Under the pieces are notes generated by a model. The model saw only the letters and a list, made by a program, of their open reading frames with translations, did not search any database and was not told the origin of the DNA. From Pseudarthrobacter sp. ATCC 49987 (GTDB lineage: Bacteria; Actinomycetota; Actinomycetes; Actinomycetales; Micrococcaceae), in contig NZ_JAABNS010000001.1 in the NCBI RefSeq assembly GCF_009928425.1, positions 1,240,001 through 1,304,000 on the forward strand: a stretch of DNA of 64,000 nt. Direction: 5' to 3'. Of this stretch, positions 1-59,854 are shown one piece after another. The stretch's first letter is position 1; each line of letters opens with the position of its first letter. Both the position numbers and the translations under genes were made by a program.

Positions 1-43
1 GACCCAACGTGAAGGACCTGTGGCGTTCACCAGGAGTGAATCA

Positions 44-403
44 ATGCACATTCTCGATTCCGTAGATGCAGCCTCGCTGCGCACCGATATTCCGGTCTTC
101 CGCGCGGGTGACACCCTCAAGGTTCACGTGAACATCATCGAAGGCAAGAACTCCCGTGTCCAGGTGTTCCAGGGCTTCGTCCTTGGCCGCCACGGCGACG
201 GACTGCGCGAAACCTTCAGCATCCGCAAGGTCTCCTTCGGCGTTGGCGTGGAGCGCAAGTTCCCGGTGCACTCCCCGATCATCGAGAAGATCGAGCTCGT
301 CTCAAAGGGTGACGTGCGCCGCGCCAAGCTGTACTACATGCGCAACCTGCGCGGCAAGGCCGCCAAGATCAAGGAAAAGCGCGACTTCCAGACCGCTAAG
401 TAA
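44..403 (+). CDS. rplS: 50S ribosomal protein L19
   Basis: This encodes ribosomal protein L19 of the large subunit, 119 residues, at the interface with the 30S subunit. The protein begins [17 protein letters not shown] and holds the conserved L19 core with [20 protein letters not shown] and [17 protein letters not shown]. An in-frame start exists at 20, but the ATG at 44 has a GGAG Shine-Dalgarno 7 nt upstream and matches the usual actinobacterial N-terminus. It stands directly upstream of lepB, as in Arthrobacter-type genomes. High confidence. Confidence 0.97.
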
Positions 404-514
404 GCCTTCCAGACGTCACCACAGGCTTCCACCGCGGGTCCACGGACCGTGTCCGGCCAGCGCCGGAGCATCCGCAACAGCGCTGTTCACGTCAAGCGTT
501 AGAGGATACGGACC

Positions 515-1195
515 ATGGAACAGACAAAACGCCAGCCCAGGAAACTCGGCTGGCGTTTTGTTTTGCTGGCCGTGGTGCTGGCCGTGCTCATCAGCGGCCT
601 GGTCCGCTCGCTATGGCTCGATGTCTACTACATCCCCTCCGCCTCGATGGAGCCGCTCTTCCGCGAAGGGGACAGGATCCTCGTGTCACGGACGGACTTC
701 CGCGCCGATCCGGCGGCACGTGGCGACATCGTCGTCTTCGACGGCCGCGGCTCCTTCGCCCCGCTGAACAGCGGCAACGGTCCTGTGCTGGACTTTCTGG
801 GCGGCGCCGGGCACTGGATCGGCCTTTCCGGCGGTGACAACACCTACATCAAACGCGTCATCGGCCTCCCCGGCGACCACGTGGTCTGCTGCGATGCCGG
901 CGGCCACCTCACAGTCAACGGCCAGCAAGTTGCGGAACCCTACCTCTATGCCGGTGACGTCCCGAGCGAGCTGAAATTCAGTGTGCTCGTTCCGCCCGGG
1001 CGGCTCTGGCTGATGGGCGACCACCGCTCCCTGTCCGCAGATTCCCGCAGTCTTTTGGGCGCCCCCGGCGGAGGCATGGTCCCGCAGGAGCGGGTGATCG
1101 GCAGGCCGGTACAGATCATCTGGCCGCTTGATAGATTTACAGCAGTAGCAAGGCCCTCCGGGGCCGCCACAACGACAGCGAAGAACGGACAGTAG
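515..1195 (+). CDS. lepB: Signal peptidase I (first copy)
   Basis: Membrane serine protease that removes signal peptides from secreted proteins. A single N-terminal transmembrane segment (about residues 14-31, [15 protein letters not shown]) precedes the catalytic serine in PSASMEP (S44). The lysine base lies in [11 protein letters not shown] (K113), followed by the GDHR-type box E motif [13 protein letters not shown]. The gene abuts the second signal peptidase, whose start codon follows its stop directly. A terminator-like hairpin lies inside its first codons. Two adjacent type I signal peptidases are common in Arthrobacter. Confidence 0.95.
526..564 (+). terminator. Terminator-like hairpin inside the 5' end of lepB
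   Basis: AAAACGCCAGCC (526-537) pairs perfectly with GGCTGGCGTTTT (548-559) around a 10-nt loop and is followed by TTTTGTTTTG. It has the form of an intrinsic terminator for rplS, yet it lies within codons 4-16 of the downstream lepB gene. It may act as an attenuator between the ribosomal gene and the signal peptidases. Confidence 0.55.
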
Positions 1196-2170
1196 ATGCC
1201 CGAGACCGGACCCCGGAATCCCGATCCGCAGGGGCAGGATCAGCCCCGGGTCACCTCCTCGGCGATCCCCGCCACGGAGCATGCCGCGGAGGCTGGATTC
1301 CGCACGGATCCCGGGCCCCTGGCCGGCGGCGGCTATCCGGCCACCCACGCCTATCCGACCTCGCAGCTGCCGCAGGCCCCGGCCCGGGATGTGCCGGCCG
1401 CAGCAACCCCGGACCGGGATGTGGCGGCTGCAGGCGGACCGGCCCATGCCGGGGGTACCTCCAAGCGTGTGCGCCGGGCCAGGGCCCAGGAACGCCACAG
1501 CCCGCTGTTCCTCTGGGTGAAGGAAGTGGCCACCGTGGTGCTCGTCGCCATTGTGCTGTCGTTCCTGATCAAGACCTTCCTGTTCCGGGCCTTCTACATT
1601 CCGTCAGAATCCATGGTCAACACCCTGGACGTGAACGACCGTATCTTCGTGAACCTCCTGGTCCCGGAACCCTTCGCCCTGGAACGCGGCGACGTCGTCG
1701 TGTTCAGGGACACCCAGGGCTGGCTGGTGCCTGCGGCGCAGAAGGCGGCCGGCCCCTTCACCTGGGTCCAGGACGGGCTGACGTTCATTGGGCTGCTCCC
1801 GGACAACTCGGAGCAGCACCTCGTCAAGCGCGTCGTCGGCCTGCCGGGCGACCATGTGGTCTGCTGCGACGCCGGCGGCCGGCTCATGGTCAACGGCGCG
1901 CCGCTGGACGAGTCCTACATCAACCCCGCCGAAGTGCCCCAGGTCCGCGAATTCGACGTTGTGGTCCCAGAAGGCAAGGTCTGGGTGATGGGCGACAACC
2001 GGAACCACTCCGCCGACTCCCGGGCCCACACAGACAGCAACGGCGGCTTCGTCAACATCGCCGACATCGAAGGCCGGGCCGCCGTCATTGCCTGGCCGCT
2101 GAACCGCATCGGCGCCCTGGACAACTACCCCGACGTCTTCCGCGGCGTGCCCGCCCCGGCCGGAAAGTAG
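1196..2170 (+). CDS. lepB: Signal peptidase I (second copy)
   Basis: A second type I signal peptidase, 324 residues. It has a long Pro/Ala-rich cytoplasmic N-terminus (residues 1-100) that the first copy lacks, then one transmembrane helix ([15 protein letters not shown]). The catalytic serine is in PSESM (S139), the lysine in [12 protein letters not shown] (K211), and box E is [14 protein letters not shown]. It starts immediately after the first copy's stop codon, so the two are co-transcribed and probably translationally coupled. The stretch [14 protein letters not shown] is shared by both proteins, consistent with tandem duplication. Confidence 0.95.
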
Positions 2171-2181
2171 CGGCTGCTGCC

Positions 2182-2853
2182 ATGTCCGACGCGCCCACCC
2201 TCGACTACGAGCGCCGCTTCCGAAGCTCCGGCGCACAGCTTGTCGCCGGCGTCGACGAGGTGGGCCGCGGCGCCCTCGCGGGACCCGTCAGCGTGGGAAT
2301 CGCGGTCGTGGACCTCCACCGGCTGACGCTGCTCGCCGACGTGCGGGACAGCAAGCTGCTCAAGGTGGCGGACCGTGAGCGGCTGGTCCCGCTGGTCCGG
2401 AGCTGGAGTGTGGCCTCCGCCGTCGGCCATGCATCGGCGAAAGAGATCGACGCCCTCGGCATCGTCGCCGCGCTCCGGCTCGCCGGCACGCGTGCCTGGC
2501 TGGCGGTCCTTGCAGCGGGGGTGACACCGGACGTCGTGCTGCTGGACGGCAGCCACAACTGGCTCTCACCGGAGACCCAGCCGTCCCTCTTCGACGCCGG
2601 CCCCGCGGAGCCGGGCTGCGACGCGCCCGTGCACACGCTGGTCAAAGCCGACATGCAGTGCCTGAGCGTTGCCGCAGCCTCCATCCTGGCCAAGGTGGAA
2701 CGCGACGGCATCATGCGCGAATTGCACAACGAATACCCGGCCTTCGGCTGGGACGTGAACAAGGGCTACGGCACCGCCACCCACAAGGACGCCCTCCGCA
2801 CCGCCGGGACCACGCCGTACCACCGTGTGAGCTGGCAGCTGCTCGCTGACTGA
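2182..2853 (+). CDS. rnhB: Ribonuclease HII
   Basis: Removes RNA from RNA/DNA hybrids and single ribonucleotides misincorporated into DNA. The N-terminal motif [15 protein letters not shown] carries the two acidic metal ligands (D25, E26). Further conserved parts are [15 protein letters not shown] with the third Asp, [22 protein letters not shown] with the fourth Asp, and the C-terminal [13 protein letters not shown]. Length (223) is normal. The gene follows lepB by 11 nt and precedes the DUF2469 gene, the standard actinobacterial order. Confidence 0.97.
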
Positions 2854-2952
2854 CATCCGGACCGTCCCGGACCGCACGGCAACCGGGTTGCCGGGGGTGC
2901 TGCGCGACGGGCCGTGGCTCGCGGGCCTCGCCGGATGGTGCAAGATGGAACC

Positions 2953-3279
2953 ATGAGTGCCGAGGACCTTGAAAACTATGAAACCGATATGGAGCTGCAG
3001 CTCTACCGCGAATACCGGGACGTTGTCGGGCTGTTCAGCTATGTGGTCGAGACCGAACGGCGTTTCTATTTGGCCAACCACGTTGACCTGCAGGCCCGCA
3101 GCGCCGACGGCGAGGTCTACTTCGACCTGACGCTGCAGGACGCCTGGGTCTGGGACGTCTACCGCTCCGCCCGCTTTGTCAAGAGCGTCCGGGTGATCAC
3201 GTTCAAGGACGTCAACGTCGAGGAACTCCCGCGCAACGAGGAGCTCGCGCTGCCCAAGGTCGGCGACCTGGGGAACTGA
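2953..3279 (+). CDS. DUF2469 family protein
   Basis: Conserved small acidic protein of unknown function found in nearly all actinobacteria between rnhB and yraN. The start at 2953 (MSAEDLENYETDMELQLYREYRDVV) matches the family N-terminus. The earlier in-frame start at 2914 would add 13 unconserved residues. The signature VETERRFYLANHV and FKDVNVEELPRN are visible. No catalytic motif is recognisable. Confidence 0.93.
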   Translation: MSAEDLENYETDMELQLYREYRDVVGLFSYVVETERRFYLANHVDLQARSADGEVYFDLTLQDAWVWDVYRSARFVKSVRVITFKDVNVEELPRNEELALPKVGDLGN

Positions 3280-3408
3280 TCATGTTTTCAGGGGGCTAGC
3301 AGGGGAGCGCCGGGCCACTCCTCCTCCACACCACCGTCCTGGCGTTGGCTATCCACATAGCGCCCTGACACTCTGGGCTGTCCTCCCGCGGCGCCGCACG
3401 CTGGTTAC

Positions 3409-3765
3409 ATGAGAGCAAAGGACGTGCTGGGCCGGCGCGGGGAAGAACTCGCGGCCGGATACCTCGAAGCCCAGGGCATGCGGATAGTGGACCGAAACTG
3501 GCGGTGTTCCGAGGGCGAAATCGACATTGTCGCCCTCGACGGCGACACGCTGGTCATCGCCGAAGTGAAAACGCGCAGGTCCCTCGCGTACGGGCATCCG
3601 TTCGAAGCTGTCGGCCTGGACAAGCTGGCGCGGCTGCACCGCCTGGCCTCAGCCTGGTGCCGTGACCATGACCTCCGGATGGCCCTGCGCCGGGTGGACG
3701 TCGTTTCCGTGCTCGACGACGGCATTGCGGACCCCCGCGTGGAACACCTCAGGGGGGTGGGGTAG
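3409..3765 (+). CDS. yraN: YraN family (UPF0102) nuclease-fold protein
   Basis: Small protein of the restriction-endonuclease-like fold, commonly encoded next to comM and dprA and thought to act in DNA processing. It shows the family pattern GRRGEELAAGYLEAQG, then a PD-(D/E)xK-like core with EIDIVALDGDTLVIAEVKTR (E...D...ExK). It is preceded by 129 bp of intergenic DNA (3280-3408) in which no clear element was seen. The stop codon is followed directly by the GTG start of comM. Confidence 0.92.
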   Translation: MRAKDVLGRRGEELAAGYLEAQGMRIVDRNWRCSEGEIDIVALDGDTLVIAEVKTRRSLAYGHPFEAVGLDKLARLHRLASAWCRDHDLRMALRRVDVVSVLDDGIADPRVEHLRGVG

Positions 3766-55320: not shown

Positions 55321-55360
55321 GAAGAAAGCCCCGTCTCGAAGGTGAGACGGGGCTTTCTTC
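55321..55360. terminator. Bidirectional terminator
   Basis: GAAGAAAGCCCCGTCTC (55321-55337) pairs with GAGACGGGGCTTTCTTC (55344-55360), a 17-bp perfect stem that serves both lsr2 and the convergent VirD4-like gene. Confidence 0.92.
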
Positions 55361-58300
55361 ATTCGCCATGGTCGACTCTCCGCCTACCCATATGGGGGTG
55401 ACGTTTAGTCTCATCAACGCGAGCTCGTCGTCGGTTGTCGATGTCCTGATGCACTTTGGCGATAGGCGTCCCGTGCTTGATGGCGGATAGGTGAACTGCC
55501 CTATCCGCGGTTCCTGTAGACGGAAATGGAGCCAACGCGGTGAAGGTCACCGGATCACCAGTGCCTCGCTCGTTGGCTATCCAGGCAATGGCGTCGTACT
55601 TCTTGAGGGCGGTGATGTCAGTCTCTGTGACATGAGATGACCCGATGGAGTTGAGCCACATACGAGCTTCTTTAGCCGTGCTTTCAAACAGCACCTTTGT
55701 GCCGGTGTTGTTGAGGATGGCTGAGCGCGTGTTTTTGTCGATCTTGTCGCTATCGTCCATGAACTGCGTCGATGTAGTCAGCGTGAACTTGTGCTTGCGG
55801 CCGCGAGCCAGGATGTCATCTAGTCCTACATCAATTTTTGTCATCTGCTGCAACTCGTCGAGGTACACGAAGTTGTTCCTGTCCGGAGTGAGGTTCTGTG
55901 CTTCCGTCCAGAGGGCTTGGAATAGCAGTGTGCCGAGGAGGCCGGCTGTGTCTTCGGGCAGGCCAGCAAGGTTGACCAGAAGGATCTTGTTGCCAAGCAG
56001 CACGTCCTTGATGTTGAAGCCAGACTGCGATTGCCCAAGTATGTTGTGAATCTCTGGACGGCTATTGAGCTGCCAGAGGCGATCATAGAGAGGCTGTGAC
56101 CTCATGCGCCGTTCTTCTTCTTTGAGGTTCATCCAGTCCTCCATGAAGAACTTGATTTGCCGATCCTTCACAGAGTTCACGACTGACCTAGCCCATGTGA
56201 CCTCTTCCGGTGTCCGCGGCCTAAGTAGAGGGAGGAGATCAATCAGCGTGGCGTTGCCATACTCAATAAGCGAATAGAGCCCGTGATGGATCAGCTCACG
56301 GGTCCAAACGCCTTTGCTGTCGGGATAGAGCTGCTGGAACAAGGCAGATACCTGATCCACCACCATGTGAGCATTGCCCTGGTCGAGGATATTGAAGCCC
56401 ACCGGATTGTCCACGGACTCACTGACGTTCAGGATGACCACGTCATCGAGCCGCTCGAAAGGGACGTAGTTGAGTGCACGGTTGAACAGCGTCTCGGGTG
56501 AGTTGCTGTTACTGGCGTCAATGATGACTACGCCGTAGCCCTTGGCCATGTCCTGAGCCGCAGAGTTGGCAAGCAGTACGGATTTGCCCGTATTATGGTT
56601 TATGAGCCCGCAAGCCAAATAGTTCTCATAATAGGGAACATGGAAATCAAAGTAAGTTTCGTCCTCTTCCTGTTTTACCTGCCATATTGTATTCTTAAAA
56701 TAAGAATTAAATGGGAGATTATGTTTTGTCAAGGACCAGTGACGAAAAGGTGCAAAGGATTCTCGAACTAGCGAGAGCGGTAAAAGGGACCGGGAATATA
56801 GCGCGAATAGTGGGTGTGCAGTCGAATACGGTAACGGCAATTTCTTCAAGACACGGCGTGAAAGTCGAGCCAGCCGTCCTATCCCGATGGACTGAAACCA
56901 TGATCGACGAAGCCGTTCGCCTGTATGAGGCGGGCCATAACGCGTATCAGGTGAGCAAGATGATGAACCGTGGTTATCGTCAGACGAACCAGTATCTCGC
57001 GAACCGCGGCGTAGAACTTCGCGGTAAAGGAAGCCCCGGAGCCAAGAACTATTTTTGGCGGTCTGGTCGCCGTGTGGATAAGGATGGATACATTCTTGTG
57101 TACTCGCCAGACCATCCACACAGGACGTCCGCGAATGCAGTCCGAGAGCATCGCCTGGTGATGGAGAAACTGATCGGCCGCTATCTGGAGCCTCATGAGG
57201 TCGTGGATCATAGGAATGGGGATAAGGGTGATAACCGACCTCAAAACCTTCGGCTTTTTTCATCAAACGCTGAGCATCTCGCTGCAACCTTGAAAGGGCG
57301 CGTCCCGAAATGGTCGGAAGAGGGACGCGTGCGCCTGGCTGCTGCGAATAGAGTTCTTCGACTTCGACGTAGGATGATCCGTTCCATACGCGATGGTGGC
57401 CTGTTACCACAACGGAGCTCTCACCGTTGTCTAGCCGATACATGCCCTCTTTTTGAAACTGGACAGGCGGCTCGGCGTGCGCGACAACGAGCTGTCGCTC
57501 GTGCATGGCGAAAACGTAGAAAGGAGCAGCGTCTTCAAACCGCTGCCTAACTGTTCGCGTTAGTCCGGTAACCGGATCATAGATCGGCGTATCTCCGCGG
57601 AGGCATCCAGATTTGCCGCCGATATGTGCGTGAAGGATCTCTTTGTCACCGTACCCCTGGGCGATGCGGCGGCCCTTCTGGCTGGTGTGGTTGCTCGTAC
57701 CAAGGACACGGCCGATTCGTGCGATTTCTTCCGTCGCGAAGAATTGTCGACCCTGCATGCGGGGGAGTCCTGGAATAGATGGTGTTCCAAGAGGGAAGCC
57801 GGCAAGTGCCGCGAGTTCGAGGACATTGAGCAGCGAAGGTAGTCGCCAGGGCGTCGAAGCGTTGTTTACTGCGTCCTGGTGAATGTCGATGTCACCTAGA
57901 GGCTTCTTGGCGACTAGCCATGCGTTCTGACTATTAGCTGTTTTCATACCCTTGAAGATGCCGTCAGTGAGGAACCGCGCTCTACCGTCAGTCTTGGCTT
58001 GAGCTGCAACACGAGCAATTACCTCATAGCAGTCGTAGTCGAGCTTCTTGCGCCGATCCTCAACTTCTTCACGGCTGGCCGTCCGACCCAGCATTTCAGA
58101 CACAATGCCGTGCCTAGTTGAAATGACAGGATGCTCGGTCGACGGTTTCCGCTGGAGCCCTGCCGGTGCAATGACCCACTGAAGAACTGCCGCTTCGCCG
58201 TGCCCAAGAGCATGGGCCAAATTCGTCAGGATGTCCTTTGAGATTATCTCTGGTGTGTTGACGTTGAGAGTGCGTGTGCTGTCTGACAGTACGATTTCTT

Positions 58301-58616
58301 CGACATGCGTCCATGCCATACGCGGCCGTGATAAGTCGTCTTCTATGACGCTGCCGGGGATCTGGTGCCGTATCTGGCTCGTGACCTGTTCGGCAAACTG
58401 CCAGGGAACTAGCAAGCGAAACTCTATGCTTCCCTTCAGTGCCCACGCTTCAAGTACGAGACTCGGGCGACCCATGATGAAAGTGAATGAGCCAAGAGGC
58501 AGCGTGGTGTGGATGACACGAAACATAGCTTGTACTGCGTCTATGGGCAGCTCGCCAGGAAACCTAACGATGTAGGCCTTGCGTTCTTTGTCATACTCGA
58601 ACTGTGACTTAATCAT
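55359..58616 (-). CDS. VirD4/TraG-like ATPase with intein
   Basis: 1085-residue precursor, about 747 after splicing. The N-terminal 330 residues contain FRLLVPWQFAEQVTSQIRHQIPGSVIEDD and PLGDIDIHQDAVNNASTPWRLPS, as in type IV secretion coupling proteins. The Walker A motif GGKSG-TGKSVLLANS is split by an intein at residues 338-675. Walker B is NNFVYLDELQQM (about residue 918), then RGRKHKFTLTTSTQF and ILNNTGTKVLFE. It should be a hexameric DNA-pumping ATPase. An IS element lies 2 bp upstream of its ATG and separates it from its GGGAGGG ribosome site. Confidence 0.85.
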   Translation of the reverse strand: MIKSQFEYDKERKAYIVRFPGELPIDAVQAMFRVIHTTLPLGSFTFIMGRPSLVLEAWALKGSIEFRLLVPWQFAEQVTSQIRHQIPGSVIEDDLSRPRMAWTHVEEIVLSDSTRTLNVNTPEIISKDILTNLAHALGHGEAAVLQWVIAPAGLQRKPSTEHPVISTRHGIVSEMLGRTASREEVEDRRKKLDYDCYEVIARVAAQAKTDGRARFLTDGIFKGMKTANSQNAWLVAKKPLGDIDIHQDAVNNASTPWRLPSLLNVLELAALAGFPLGTPSIPGLPRMQGRQFFATEEIARIGRVLGTSNHTSQKGRRIAQGYGDKEILHAHIGGKSGCLRGDTPIYDPVTGLTRTVRQRFEDAAPFYVFAMHERQLVVAHAEPPVQFQKEGMYRLDNGESSVVVTGHHRVWNGSSYVEVEELYSQQPGARVPLPTISGRALSRLQRDAQRLMKKAEGFEVGYHPYPHSYDPRPHEAPDSGRSVSPSPGDALGLHSRTSCVDGLASTQECIHPYPHGDQTAKNSSWLRGFLYREVLRRGSRDTGSSDDNHGSSSCSPDTRYGPPHTGERLRRSWFQSIGIGRLARLSRRVLKKLPLPYSTAHPLFALYSRSLLPLSLVRESFAPFRHWSLTKHNLPFNSYFKNTIWQVKQEEDETYFDFHVPYYENYLACGLINHNTGKSVLLANSAAQDMAKGYGVVIIDASNSNSPETLFNRALNYVPFERLDDVVILNVSESVDNPVGFNILDQGNAHMVVDQVSALFQQLYPDSKGVWTRELIHHGLYSLIEYGNATLIDLLPLLRPRTPEEVTWARSVVNSVKDRQIKFFMEDWMNLKEEERRMRSQPLYDRLWQLNSRPEIHNILGQSQSGFNIKDVLLGNKILLVNLAGLPEDTAGLLGTLLFQALWTEAQNLTPDRNNFVYLDELQQMTKIDVGLDDILARGRKHKFTLTTSTQFMDDSDKIDKNTRSAILNNTGTKVLFESTAKEARMWLNSIGSSHVTETDITALKKYDAIAWIANERGTGDPVTFTALAPFPSTGTADRAVHLSAIKHGTPIAKVHQDIDNRRRARVDETKRHPHMGRRRVDHGE
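56592..57605 (-). other. Intein in the VirD4-like ATPase P-loop
   Basis: 338 residues in the ATPase frame. It begins Cys1 (CLRGDTPIYDPVTGLTRTV, block A) and carries block B (NGESSVVVTGHHRVWNGSSYVEVEELY). It ends in blocks F and G (DETYFDFHVPYYENYLACGLINHN) before Thr+1. The central part reads as improbable protein (RRGSRDTGSSDDNHGSSSCSPDTRY) because the opposite strand there encodes an HNH endonuclease. The frame nevertheless contains no stop. Confidence 0.9.
56711..57550 (+). CDS. HNH homing endonuclease antisense within the intein
   Basis: 279-residue ORF on the strand opposite to the intein and entirely inside it. The N-terminal 100 residues look like two DNA-binding helical repeats (IARIVGVQSNTVTAISSRHGVKVEP and MIDEAVRLYEAGHNAYQVSKMMNRG). 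Then follow an HNH_3 core (VREHRLVMEKLIGRYLEPHEVVDHRNGDKGDNRPQNLRLFSSNAEHLAATLKG). The last 80 residues are Arg-rich and lie opposite the intein's N-terminal splicing blocks, so they may be read-through of a shared region. It should promote homing of this intein. Confidence 0.85.
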   Translation: MGDYVLSRTSDEKVQRILELARAVKGTGNIARIVGVQSNTVTAISSRHGVKVEPAVLSRWTETMIDEAVRLYEAGHNAYQVSKMMNRGYRQTNQYLANRGVELRGKGSPGAKNYFWRSGRRVDKDGYILVYSPDHPHRTSANAVREHRLVMEKLIGRYLEPHEVVDHRNGDKGDNRPQNLRLFSSNAEHLAATLKGRVPKWSEEGRVRLAAANRVLRLRRRMIRSIRDGGLLPQRSSHRCLADTCPLFETGQAARRARQRAVARAWRKRRKEQRLQTAA

Positions 58617-58661: not shown

Positions 58662-59540
58662 TTACGCGGCTGAGGCCGCGTTTTTTATTGTCTCAAACTC
58701 GATTGGTGTCAGCCGTCCGAGGGCACGTTGACGGCGTTTGCGGTGGTAGCTGCGCTCGATCCAGGTCGTGATGGCCAGCCGGAGCTCGGCCCGGGTCTCC
58801 CATCGTTTCCGGTTCAGGACGTTCTTTTGCAGCAGGGAGAAGAACGATTCCATCGCTGCATTGTCACCGCATGCCCCTACCCGGCCCATCGATCCGTTCA
58901 GGCCGTAGGTGTTCAGGGCCAGGACGAACTTTCTGGATCTGAACTGGGACCCTCTGTCCGAGTGGACCACCGTGCCCGCCGGTTTCCTGAGGGCCACGGC
59001 GTGGTCCAGGGCGGCGACGGCCAGGGACGCTTTCATCCGCCCGTCCATCGAGTACCCGACGATCCGGTTTGAGTGAAGGTCCTTGATCGCGCACAGGTAC
59101 AGCTTGCCCTCCCCGGTGTGGTGCTCGGTGATGTCCGTGAGCCATTTCCGGTTCGGTGCCGTGGCGCTGAAGTCCCGTTCGACGAGGTCATCGTGGACCG
59201 GCGGGCCGGCCTTGAGCCCTGACCGGCGCCGGCGGTGGATCACCGAGAGGATGCCGTTCTCCGAGCACAGCCGCCAGATCCGGCGTTCACTGGCCCCAGG
59301 GCCGGGACCGGCGTTGATCTCATCGGCGATGAACCGGTATCCGAAGGCAGGATCGTCCCGGTGGTGATCGATGGCGGCGTTGATCAGATGCGCTTCTTCC
59401 CAGTCCCGGGCCGGGACGGGATTGGCGGCCCACTGGTAGTAGGCCTGTCTGGAGAAATTCAGTACCCGGCAGGACACTGCCACGGGAACCCGGATCGGGG
59501 CGTCCCTGGCAGCCAGCTCGCGGACCAGCGGGTACATCAT
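58662..59540 (-). CDS. IS3-family transposase, orfB (copy 2)
   Basis: Identical to orfB at 42011, with the same DDE residues (TDITEH, HSDRGSQ, AAMESFF). Intact, so either copy could mobilise both. Confidence 0.92.
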   Translation of the reverse strand: MMYPLVRELAARDAPIRVPVAVSCRVLNFSRQAYYQWAANPVPARDWEEAHLINAAIDHHRDDPAFGYRFIADEINAGPGPGASERRIWRLCSENGILSVIHRRRRSGLKAGPPVHDDLVERDFSATAPNRKWLTDITEHHTGEGKLYLCAIKDLHSNRIVGYSMDGRMKASLAVAALDHAVALRKPAGTVVHSDRGSQFRSRKFVLALNTYGLNGSMGRVGACGDNAAMESFFSLLQKNVLNRKRWETRAELRLAITTWIERSYHRKRRQRALGRLTPIEFETIKNAASAA

Positions 59541-59854
59541 TTTTTTGGGTTGATGTCCCGGGACAAGTAGGCCACGGCACGGCGCATGACTTCGGCTTCC
59601 TGTTCCAGGAGCCGGATGCGTTTGTTGGCCTCCCGCAACTTCGCGGCGTCATCGGACACCGCCCCGGACTTCACGCCGTCTTCTCTGTCGGCGATCTTCA
59701 TCCAGCGGTGCAGGGCAGCGGGCGAGACACCGAAGTCCTTGGCGATCTGGATGATGGGCGCTTCGCCCTTGCGGGCAACCGCGACGACATCGCGGCGGAA
59801 TTCTTCGGGAAAGGCTTTGGGCATGATGAACATCCTTCCACCCGCAAGGATCAA
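59537..59854 (-). CDS. IS3-family transposase, orfA (copy 2)
   Basis: Identical in sequence to orfA at 42886: helix-turn-helix and leucine-zipper regions followed by the A7 frameshift site. Confidence 0.92.
   Translation of the reverse strand: MILAGGRMFIMPKAFPEEFRRDVVAVARKGEAPIIQIAKDFGVSPAALHRWMKIADREDGVKSGAVSDDAAKLREANKRIRLLEQEAEVMRRAVAYLSRDINPKK

What the first reader, a model, noticed from the sequence alone, without database searches (positions are those of the whole stretch)
56592..57605. Homing endonuclease encoded antisense inside an intein
The intein of the VirD4-like ATPase (minus strand) is open over 338 codons, with good splicing blocks at both ends. The opposite strand of its middle carries a 279-codon ORF with a clear HNH_3 core. 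Homing endonucleases of large inteins are normally in frame with the splicing domains. Here the same DNA must keep the intein frame open on one strand and code an enzyme on the other.
Basis: partly seen in the sequence, partly recalled or inferred. Interest (0 to 1): 0.95.

Follow-up and report, generated by a model that had tools for sequence, protein, structure and literature searches.

The report
Mobile intein with antisense DNA-cutting gene
A self-splicing protein insert in a bacterial ATPase carries the gene for its probable DNA-cutting enzyme on the opposite DNA strand of the same stretch, and the same two-strand arrangement turns up in many phages, so one piece of DNA appears to be read as two proteins in opposite directions.

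Summary
Confirmed. The intein (56592-57605, minus, 338 codons) splits the Walker A motif (GKSG|TGKS) of a VirD4/TraG-like ATPase; a relative 81% identical has that motif uninterrupted. A 279-codon HNH_3 gene lies antisense inside it (56711-57550).

It is not a one-off. Of 116 viral-contig loci with close HNH relatives, 112 lie antisense in one continuous host frame, all in the same codon phase; 110 of these match intein profiles on both sides. Embedded HNH genes show 0 host-phase stops against 430 expected from synonymous shuffles; free-standing relatives show 169 against 184. In 15 of 15 independent pairs, changes peak at the HNH wobble position inside the overlap and at the host wobble position in the C-extein. 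Ribosome-binding signals are enriched at HNH starts. Pseudoalteromonas phages PHS3 and AL form a near-identical occupied/empty allele pair.

Best explanation: a mobile intein whose homing endonuclease is a separate antisense gene. Splicing, cleavage and antisense expression are untested. Ten searches of an open-access library found antisense homing genes in group I introns and a hidden same-gene HNH in phage methylases, none in inteins.

The parts
55359..58616 (-). VirD4/TraG-like P-loop ATPase gene that holds the intein
   Evidence: ORF; TraG-D_C weak; homologue L008 81% identical over the C-extein
57606..58616 (-). N-extein, ending ...HIGGKSG
56592..57605 (-). Intein, 338 aa, C1 to N338
   Evidence: empty site in L008
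57351..57605 (-). N-terminal splicing part (first 85 aa; C1 and block B VTGHH)
56592..56717 (-). C-terminal splicing part (last 42 aa; YFDFHVPYYENYLACGLINHN)
55359..56591 (-). C-extein, starting TGKSVLL, with the stop codon
56711..57550 (+). Antisense HNH endonuclease gene, 279 codons plus stop, wholly inside the intein; starts 119 nt from the intein's C end
57149..57268 (+). HNH_3 core (HNH residues 147-186)
   Evidence: invariant residues
56894..57037 (+). Helix-turn-helix-like part (HNH residues 62-109)
   Evidence: weak: NF040595 E=4.1e-8, 33.2 bits against a 140 cut-off; HTH_58 E=0.016
56674..56701 (+). Promoter-like hexamers upstream of the HNH start (TTTACC, 16 nt, TAAAAT)
   Evidence: 3 sites in the region against a mean of 1.2 (sd 1.1) in shuffles, not significant

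Best explanation
This is a mobile intein whose homing endonuclease is a separate gene on the opposite strand of the same DNA. The minus strand is translated straight through: N-extein, N-terminal splicing part, a free linker (the antisense reading of the HNH gene), C-terminal splicing part, C-extein; the two splicing parts then remove the 338 aa and restore the P-loop ATPase. The plus strand is transcribed separately and translated, from a start about 120 nt inside the intein's C-terminal end, into an HTH-HNH nuclease. The nuclease cuts intein-free alleles at or near the P-loop site, and repair copies the whole intein, with the antisense gene inside it, into the cut allele. Host-frame openness is held by selection on the ATPase or terminase; the HNH sequence by selection on the nuclease. 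Shown (mostly in relatives): both frames, fixed phase, stop avoidance, codon-position selection, start-site ribosome-binding signal, natural empty and occupied alleles. Inferred: splicing, cleavage and its specificity, antisense transcription, homing.
For: Architecture: 112 of 116 viral loci antisense in one host frame in the same phase, 110 with intein profile hits on both sides, 2 on one side; 5 of 5 named cases (window, phages Taid, PHS3, Abuela, Setonix). Stops: embedded 112 genes, 15,427 codons, 0 observed against 429.8 expected; free 46 genes, 4,161 codons, 169 against 184.3. After removal of near-duplicates: 53 open genes, 0 against 217.9 (one, L033, is not in an intein). Selection: 15 of 15 pairs; overlapped middle at host positions 1/2/3 .076/.225/.064, C-extein .116/.072/.395. 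Start: Shine-Dalgarno match of 4 or more bases at the first start in 29 of 55 loci against 100 of 446 internal starts, Fisher p=5.5e-6; start offset median 122 nt, 66 of 80 within 110-149 nt, counting starts at least 80 nt inside. Splicing residues C1, block B His and N338 invariant in 43 inteins. Alleles: L008; PHS3 against AL: C-extein 98.7% identical, flanks 98-100% identical for 500 nt upstream and 100% for 200 nt downstream, nearest differences at -1 and -4.
Against: No expression, splicing or cleavage data. The window's own intein has no close relative (apart from G000, 1 of 198 same-genus genomes gave a hit, E=9.9e-5 with 8 stops inside), so codon-position selection is not shown in the window itself. 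The window's HNH start has only a weak Shine-Dalgarno match (TAAG) and an insignificant promoter match; 26 of 55 loci lack a match of 4 or more. Co-inheritance is only moderate: splicing part against HNH r=0.51, but the C-part alone gives 0.27, the N-part DNA often overlaps the HNH gene, and HNH against extein gives 0.45. In L038 and L158 the host frame is broken. Structure prediction was never available (15 tries, machine busy).
Confidence: 0.87

Rival explanations
1. The antisense HNH ORF, or the host frame opposite it, is a chance mirror ORF and only one strand is meaningful.
For: Long antisense ORFs can arise from codon bias (general knowledge); two of 46 free genes examined show chance long frames in another phase (L133, L139).
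Against: HNH_3 E=1.1e-10; 0 stops against 429.8 expected in embedded genes but near the expected number in free relatives; wobble peaks switch between overlap and C-extein in 15 of 15 pairs; invariant splicing residues.
Confidence: 0.02
2. It is a split intein: the host protein is made in two pieces separated by an independent HNH gene, as in the 'fractured genes' of phage metagenomes (recalled; the paper is not held).
For: L158 has an N-half ending in a stop, a C-half with its own ATG after GAGGT, and the antisense HNH between; L038 has an N-half ending soon after block B. The PHS3 record annotates terminase and HNH as separate genes.
Against: In the window and 112 of 116 viral loci the frame is continuous, with 0 stops against 429.8 expected in 112 genes. 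In the two split candidates the host phase holds 4 stops each, against 2.3 and 3.6 expected.
Confidence: 0.05
3. A free-standing phage HNH gene landed in a mini-intein by accident; the nuclease no longer serves intein mobility and is merely tolerated.
For: HNH relatives also occur outside inteins (40 of 47 genome loci lack an antisense intein frame); a mini-intein without HNH exists (L017); the cleavage site is unknown.
Against: The HNH core is intact in the loci checked and under purifying selection; the gene starts at a near-fixed place and stops inside the intein in 77 of 78 loci; occupied and empty alleles differ beside the insertion as co-conversion would leave them.
Confidence: 0.05
4. 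A group I intron with an antisense homing gene rather than an intein.
For: Antisense homing genes are known in nuclear group I introns (PMC9548176, passages).
Against: No Rfam intron hit at E up to 1 in 56300-57900; the one hit is mir-194 at 0.39, below its gathering score. The frame is open with splicing residues conserved.
Confidence: 0.01

Closest known systems
Large inteins with an in-frame homing endonuclease domain, e.g. P-loop terminase inteins of mycobacteriophages (PMC5050341, passages)
   Same: Splicing domain, insertion at a conserved ATPase P-loop of phage terminase, nuclease placed between the N and C splicing parts, sporadic presence with empty alleles.
   Different: The nuclease is not fused in frame: it is a separate gene on the opposite strand, and the intein's own frame there is an S/R/L/P-rich stretch.
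ShiLan-type hidden HNH insertion in phage DNA methylases (PMC11855218; outline and abstract, passages, sections 3.6 and 4.3)
   Same: HNH homing gene hidden out of frame in a host gene whose own frame stays open.
   Different: [quoted passage not shown] here it is antisense, inside an intein.
Antisense homing endonuclease genes in nuclear group I introns, e.g. I-DsqI (PMC9548176, passages) and Porphyra introns (PMC2585584, passages)
   Same: Homing gene on the strand opposite the splicing element; I-DsqI is expressed in vivo.
   Different: The intron is spliced as RNA, so the other strand need not be an open protein frame; here both strands are coding.
Split inteins with an intervening endonuclease gene ('fractured genes'; recalled, not held)
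   Same: A free endonuclease gene between intein halves; L158 looks like this.
   Different: The window's frame is continuous.
DnaB-type mini-inteins (PDB 4o1r, 1mi8)
   Same: Best profile matches among solved chains (5.3e-23, 1.8e-21).
   Different: Mini-inteins of 142 and 158 residues, too short to hold an endonuclease insertion.

Membership tests
Intein (protein-splicing element) | N-terminal Cys/Ser, block B His, C-terminal Asn (usually His-Asn) followed by Cys/Ser/Thr | tested here: met
   C1, TGHH, HN|T in the window; C1, block B His and N338 invariant in 43 inteins
Intein (protein-splicing element) | Match to a splicing-domain profile | tested here: met
   Window alone sub-threshold (17.7 of 35.8 bits); 30 of 42 host proteins match Intein_splicing at E<=0.001; family profile hits a DnaB-type mini-intein at 5.3e-23
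Intein (protein-splicing element) | In-frame insertion in a conserved site with a precise empty homologue | tested here: met
   L008 GKSGTGKS; for PHS3, phage AL WGGAGSGKS
Intein (protein-splicing element) | Excises itself and joins the exteins | not testable with these tools
   Needs expression
HNH homing endonuclease | HNH_3 profile and conserved core residues | tested here: met
   41.4 bits against 24.8; 18 invariant columns in 40 sequences
HNH homing endonuclease | Cuts the empty allele and drives its conversion | not testable with these tools
   Only indirect: PHS3/AL alleles with differences at -1 and -4
Large intein with in-frame endonuclease domain | Nuclease encoded in the intein's own frame | tested here: not met
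   No endonuclease family in the host-frame protein at E<=0.1 in Pfam; the HNH is antisense
ShiLan-type hidden HNH insertion | Out-of-frame HNH in an insertion without splicing domains | tested here: not met
   Antisense, with splicing parts
Group I intron with antisense homing gene | Group I ribozyme core | tested here: not met
   No Rfam intron hit at E up to 1
Split intein / fractured gene | N and C halves in separate genes | tested here: not met
   Continuous 338-codon frame; candidate split relative L158

The most novel reading that the evidence does not exclude
A widespread and overlooked class of mobile inteins, at P-loops of phage terminases and other ATPases and helicases, encodes its homing endonuclease on the antisense strand in one fixed codon phase. 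Two proteins are thereby written on opposite strands over about 200 codons: host wobble faces HNH position 2, HNH wobble faces host position 2. The arrangement uncouples nuclease expression from the host gene, and loss of the continuous frame turns such inteins into natural split inteins with a gene between the halves (L158).
Probability: 0.6. Interest if true: 0.95.

Novelty: new variant of a known kind. Interest (0 to 1): 0.9.

Why it matters
Homing inteins are described as fusions of a splicing domain and an in-frame nuclease (general knowledge; PMC5050341 and PMC11855218 passages). Here the two are encoded on opposite strands of one stretch, in more than a hundred related loci, in terminases, a clamp-loader-like ATPase, Strawberry-notch and SNF2-type helicases and TraG-like proteins. 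That gives a large natural data set for antisense overlapping genes with clean evolutionary tests. It explains mis-annotation: the PHS3 record starts its terminase inside the intein's C-terminal end, and the HNH of Taid and Abuela is not annotated. It makes an origin of split inteins with intervening nucleases testable (L158), and it offers a natural occupied/empty allele pair, phages PHS3 and AL on Pseudoalteromonas marina, for a homing assay.

Tried and rejected
Chance antisense ORF: rejected by shuffles and free-standing controls. Group I intron: no hit. Split intein for the window: rejected, but L158 and L038 look split. My first impression that 7 of 81 loci had a broken HNH (note) was wrong: in those 7, and in L153 and L175, the stops lie outside the HNH core, in the tail beyond the natural stop or in an N-terminal stretch of the match. 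L130, an antisense HNH in a DNA methylase frame without intein profile hits, is not counted as an intein but is among the 112 'embedded' genes. A window-specific codon-position test was not possible: no close relative. Of the other phage HNH relatives I opened four (L020, L021, L022, L023): the annotated neighbours lie on the strand of the HNH match, and none had an intein antisense to it.

Limits of the counts: keep only the 80 best of 536 and 589 confirmed hits, so 112 of 116 is the share among the closest HNH relatives, not among all HNH genes; in the genome collection it is 6 of 47 (plus L130). Near-identical loci are included (83 loci reduce to 58 at 90% identity), so some 'held-out' loci are close copies of training ones. 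One search dropped L051, L054 and L088, and every locus with a stop or N in the match. L060 (host frame cut by the contig end), L038, L158 and L111 fell into the 'free' group. L012-L015 and L016 (same contig as L058) were not in the census. Host Pfam used 42 host proteins, A4 and A5 40 and 43 sequences, 51. L017 was entered in A5 with about 9 extein residues too many. Distances only; no trees were built. The in-house start filter ignores starts less than 80 nt inside the intein; in seven loci (L029, L040, L078, L082, L086, L087, L100) the first possible start lies outside the intein. Plasmid and phage searches with the intein itself found nothing.

Full report
OBSERVATION. The minus-strand gene 55359-58616 encodes a 1085-residue P-loop ATPase, and plus-strand ORF 56711-57550 encodes 279 residues. 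The intein is 56592-57605 (338 aa, C1 to N338) and stop-free. It lies inside Walker A...IGGKSG | intein | TGKSVLL.... A homologue 81% identical over the C-extein, L008 from IMG/VR, reads HIAGKSGTGKSVLL without interruption, which fixes both boundaries. The plus-strand ORF matches Pfam HNH_3 at 1.1e-10 and PHROG HNH families down to 2.3e-30. The host-frame protein shows no endonuclease domain in Pfam at E up to 0.1. The host is VirD4/TraG-like by weak matches only. The genome is 4.4 Mb in 3 contigs. Of 198 same-genus genomes, only the window's own and one other, with a weak hit full of stops (E=9.9e-5), matched the intein.

IS IT CHANCE? With the HNH protein fixed and codons shuffled among synonyms, the window's host frame should hold 8.04 stops; it holds 0, and none of 2000 shuffles was open.

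RELATIVES. A search with the intein N-domain found two terminase inteins in viral contigs: L016, which also carries an antisense HNH, and L017, a mini-intein with none. Two cultured phages from the HNH search, Pectobacterium phage Taid and Pseudoalteromonas phage PHS3, have the same arrangement in terminase. An alignment of four HNH proteins then fetched 80 viral loci; in 78 of 80 an antisense frame spans the HNH match. A wider alignment brought 34 further viral loci and 47 genome loci. Final census, with profiles of the N and C splicing parts built from 51 of the sequences: of 116 viral loci (80 + 34 + L009 and L010), 112 have the antisense host frame in the same phase, 110 with both N and C hits and 2 with one (L057, N side missing; L153, whose C block was seen by motif). 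Named cases: 5 of 5 (window, Taid, PHS3, Abuela, Setonix). Genomes: 6 of 47 with both hits (Opitutae, Polaromonas sp. CG9_12, two Acidobacteria, a Deltaproteobacterium, an actinobacterium; titles), and L130 with a same-phase frame but no intein hit. Among 50,697 phage records the PHS3 HNH matches 9 over at least 80% of its length: PHS3 and eight Pectobacterium/Dickeya phages; of those eight I opened three.

PHASE. In the first set 80 of 81 antisense frames had host codon position 1 opposite HNH position 1; the exception, L033, is not an intein. In this phase host wobble faces HNH position 2 and HNH wobble faces host position 2, so selection on the two proteins can be told apart.

STOPS. Embedded genes: 112 genes, 15,427 codons, 0 stops in the host phase against 429.8 expected; the other two antisense phases show 724 and 484 (expected 667.5 and 484; the last is fixed by the design of the shuffle). 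Free-standing relatives: 46 genes, 4,161 codons, 169 against 184.3. Non-redundant set: 53 genes with the phase open, 0 against 217.9 (includes L033).

SELECTION. In 15 independent pairs (one search gave the same picture with 17 pairs and coarser zones) substitution rates at host positions 1/2/3 were .116/.072/.395 in C-exteins (5177 codons).153/.069/.375 in N-exteins (1017).104/.065/.287 in splicing parts outside the HNH (1312).076/.225/.064 in the overlapped middle (2606), and .135/.117/.204 where HNH overlaps splicing parts (554). The middle peaks at HNH position 3 in 15 of 15 pairs; the C-extein peaks at host position 3 in 15 of 15. Alignment was by the host protein, which if anything works against this result. 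The antisense HNH is therefore a protein under purifying selection, while the intein's middle is free except for being stop-free. In the window that middle is S, R, L and P rich.

TRANSLATION START. The first start codon at least 80 nt inside the intein lies a median 122 nt from its C end, 66 of 80 within 110-149 nt (the window 119). Shine-Dalgarno matches of 4 or more bases precede it in 29 of 55 non-redundant loci against 100 of 446 internal starts (p=5.5e-6); L050 has a full TAAGGAGGT. The window's own signal is weak (TAAG), and a promoter-like pair at 56674-56701 is not significant.

ANATOMY. The HNH stop lies inside the intein in 77 of 78 loci; in L093 it passes the N end by 47 nt. The splicing residues C1, block B His and N338 are invariant in 43 inteins. 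The best profile match among solved chains is a DnaB-type mini-intein. Hosts in a sample of 42: Terminase_6N in 19, Terminase_3 in 6, TraG-D_C in 2, DNA polymerase III delta subunit in 1, AAA in 1; also Strawberry-notch helicases (L107, L183) and a helicase with an SNF2 match (L108).

MOBILITY. Splicing-part distances correlate with HNH distances (Spearman 0.51) more than with C-extein distances (0.26); but HNH against extein is 0.45, and the C-part alone against HNH only 0.27, while the N-part often shares DNA with the HNH gene, so co-inheritance is supported only moderately (51 sequences). Similar inteins sit in dissimilar terminases (L019 and L094: 59% identity in the splicing part, 16% in the C-extein). 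PHS3 and phage AL are both recorded from Pseudoalteromonas marina; AL's terminase (98.7% identical) has an intact WGGAGSGKS, and the PHS3 HNH has no match in AL. Flanks are 98-100% identical for 500 nt upstream and 100% for 200 nt downstream, and the nearest differences lie 1 and 4 nt upstream of the insertion. This fits recent homing with local co-conversion; it does not prove it.

EXCEPTIONS. L158 has an N-half ending in a stop, a C-half with its own ATG, and the antisense HNH between: a candidate split intein in what looks by eye like an AAA ATPase (no family scan). L038 shows the N-half only (contig end). L111 is the other end of the contig that holds L107. In L038 and L158 the host phase holds 4 stops each, against 2.3 and 3.6 expected, as expected once the frame is released. 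L061 is free-standing apart from a weak, misplaced hit.

KNOWN WORK. Ten searches of the open-access library gave no paper that, in the titles and abstract starts listed or the passages I read, describes an antisense homing gene in an intein. Nearest: the hidden HNH of PMC11855218 (outline and abstract, passages, two sections), antisense homing genes in group I introns (PMC9548176, PMC2585584: passages), terminase inteins (PMC5050341: passages). PMC6293099, PMC6669764, PMC12768974, PMC2988022 and PMC5418858 were checked by passages only. Subscription papers and preprints were not searchable, so an earlier report cannot be excluded.

VERDICT. The finding is real and belongs to a widespread arrangement in which the probable homing nuclease of an intein is an antisense gene in a fixed phase. 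Genetics and biochemistry are untested.

Noticed in passing
L158 2964-4970: Candidate natural split intein with the antisense HNH gene between the halves and GAGGT before the ATG of the C-half.
   Followed up: partly
L130 1523-4489: Antisense HNH inside an N6/N4 DNA methylase frame with no intein profile hit: perhaps an antisense counterpart of the ShiLan-type insertion.
   Followed up: no
window 58662-59854: IS3-like pair of ORFs (integrase core) on the minus strand, ending 46 bp from the ATPase start codon; it may affect expression of the gene.
   Followed up: no
[quoted passage not shown] the frame is open through both.
   Followed up: yes
L107 and L183: Frames of more than 2800 codons (Strawberry-notch helicase, polyvalent-protein domain) interrupted by the same kind of intein.
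   Followed up: partly
L146 (Rubrobacteraceae MAG) 1-3600: A 1200-codon plus-strand frame with several intein N-domain hits, next to an HNH match on the same strand.
   Followed up: no
window 56691-56707: AT-rich inverted repeat ATTCTTA-AAA-TAAGAAT just before the HNH start codon; possible regulatory site.
   Followed up: no
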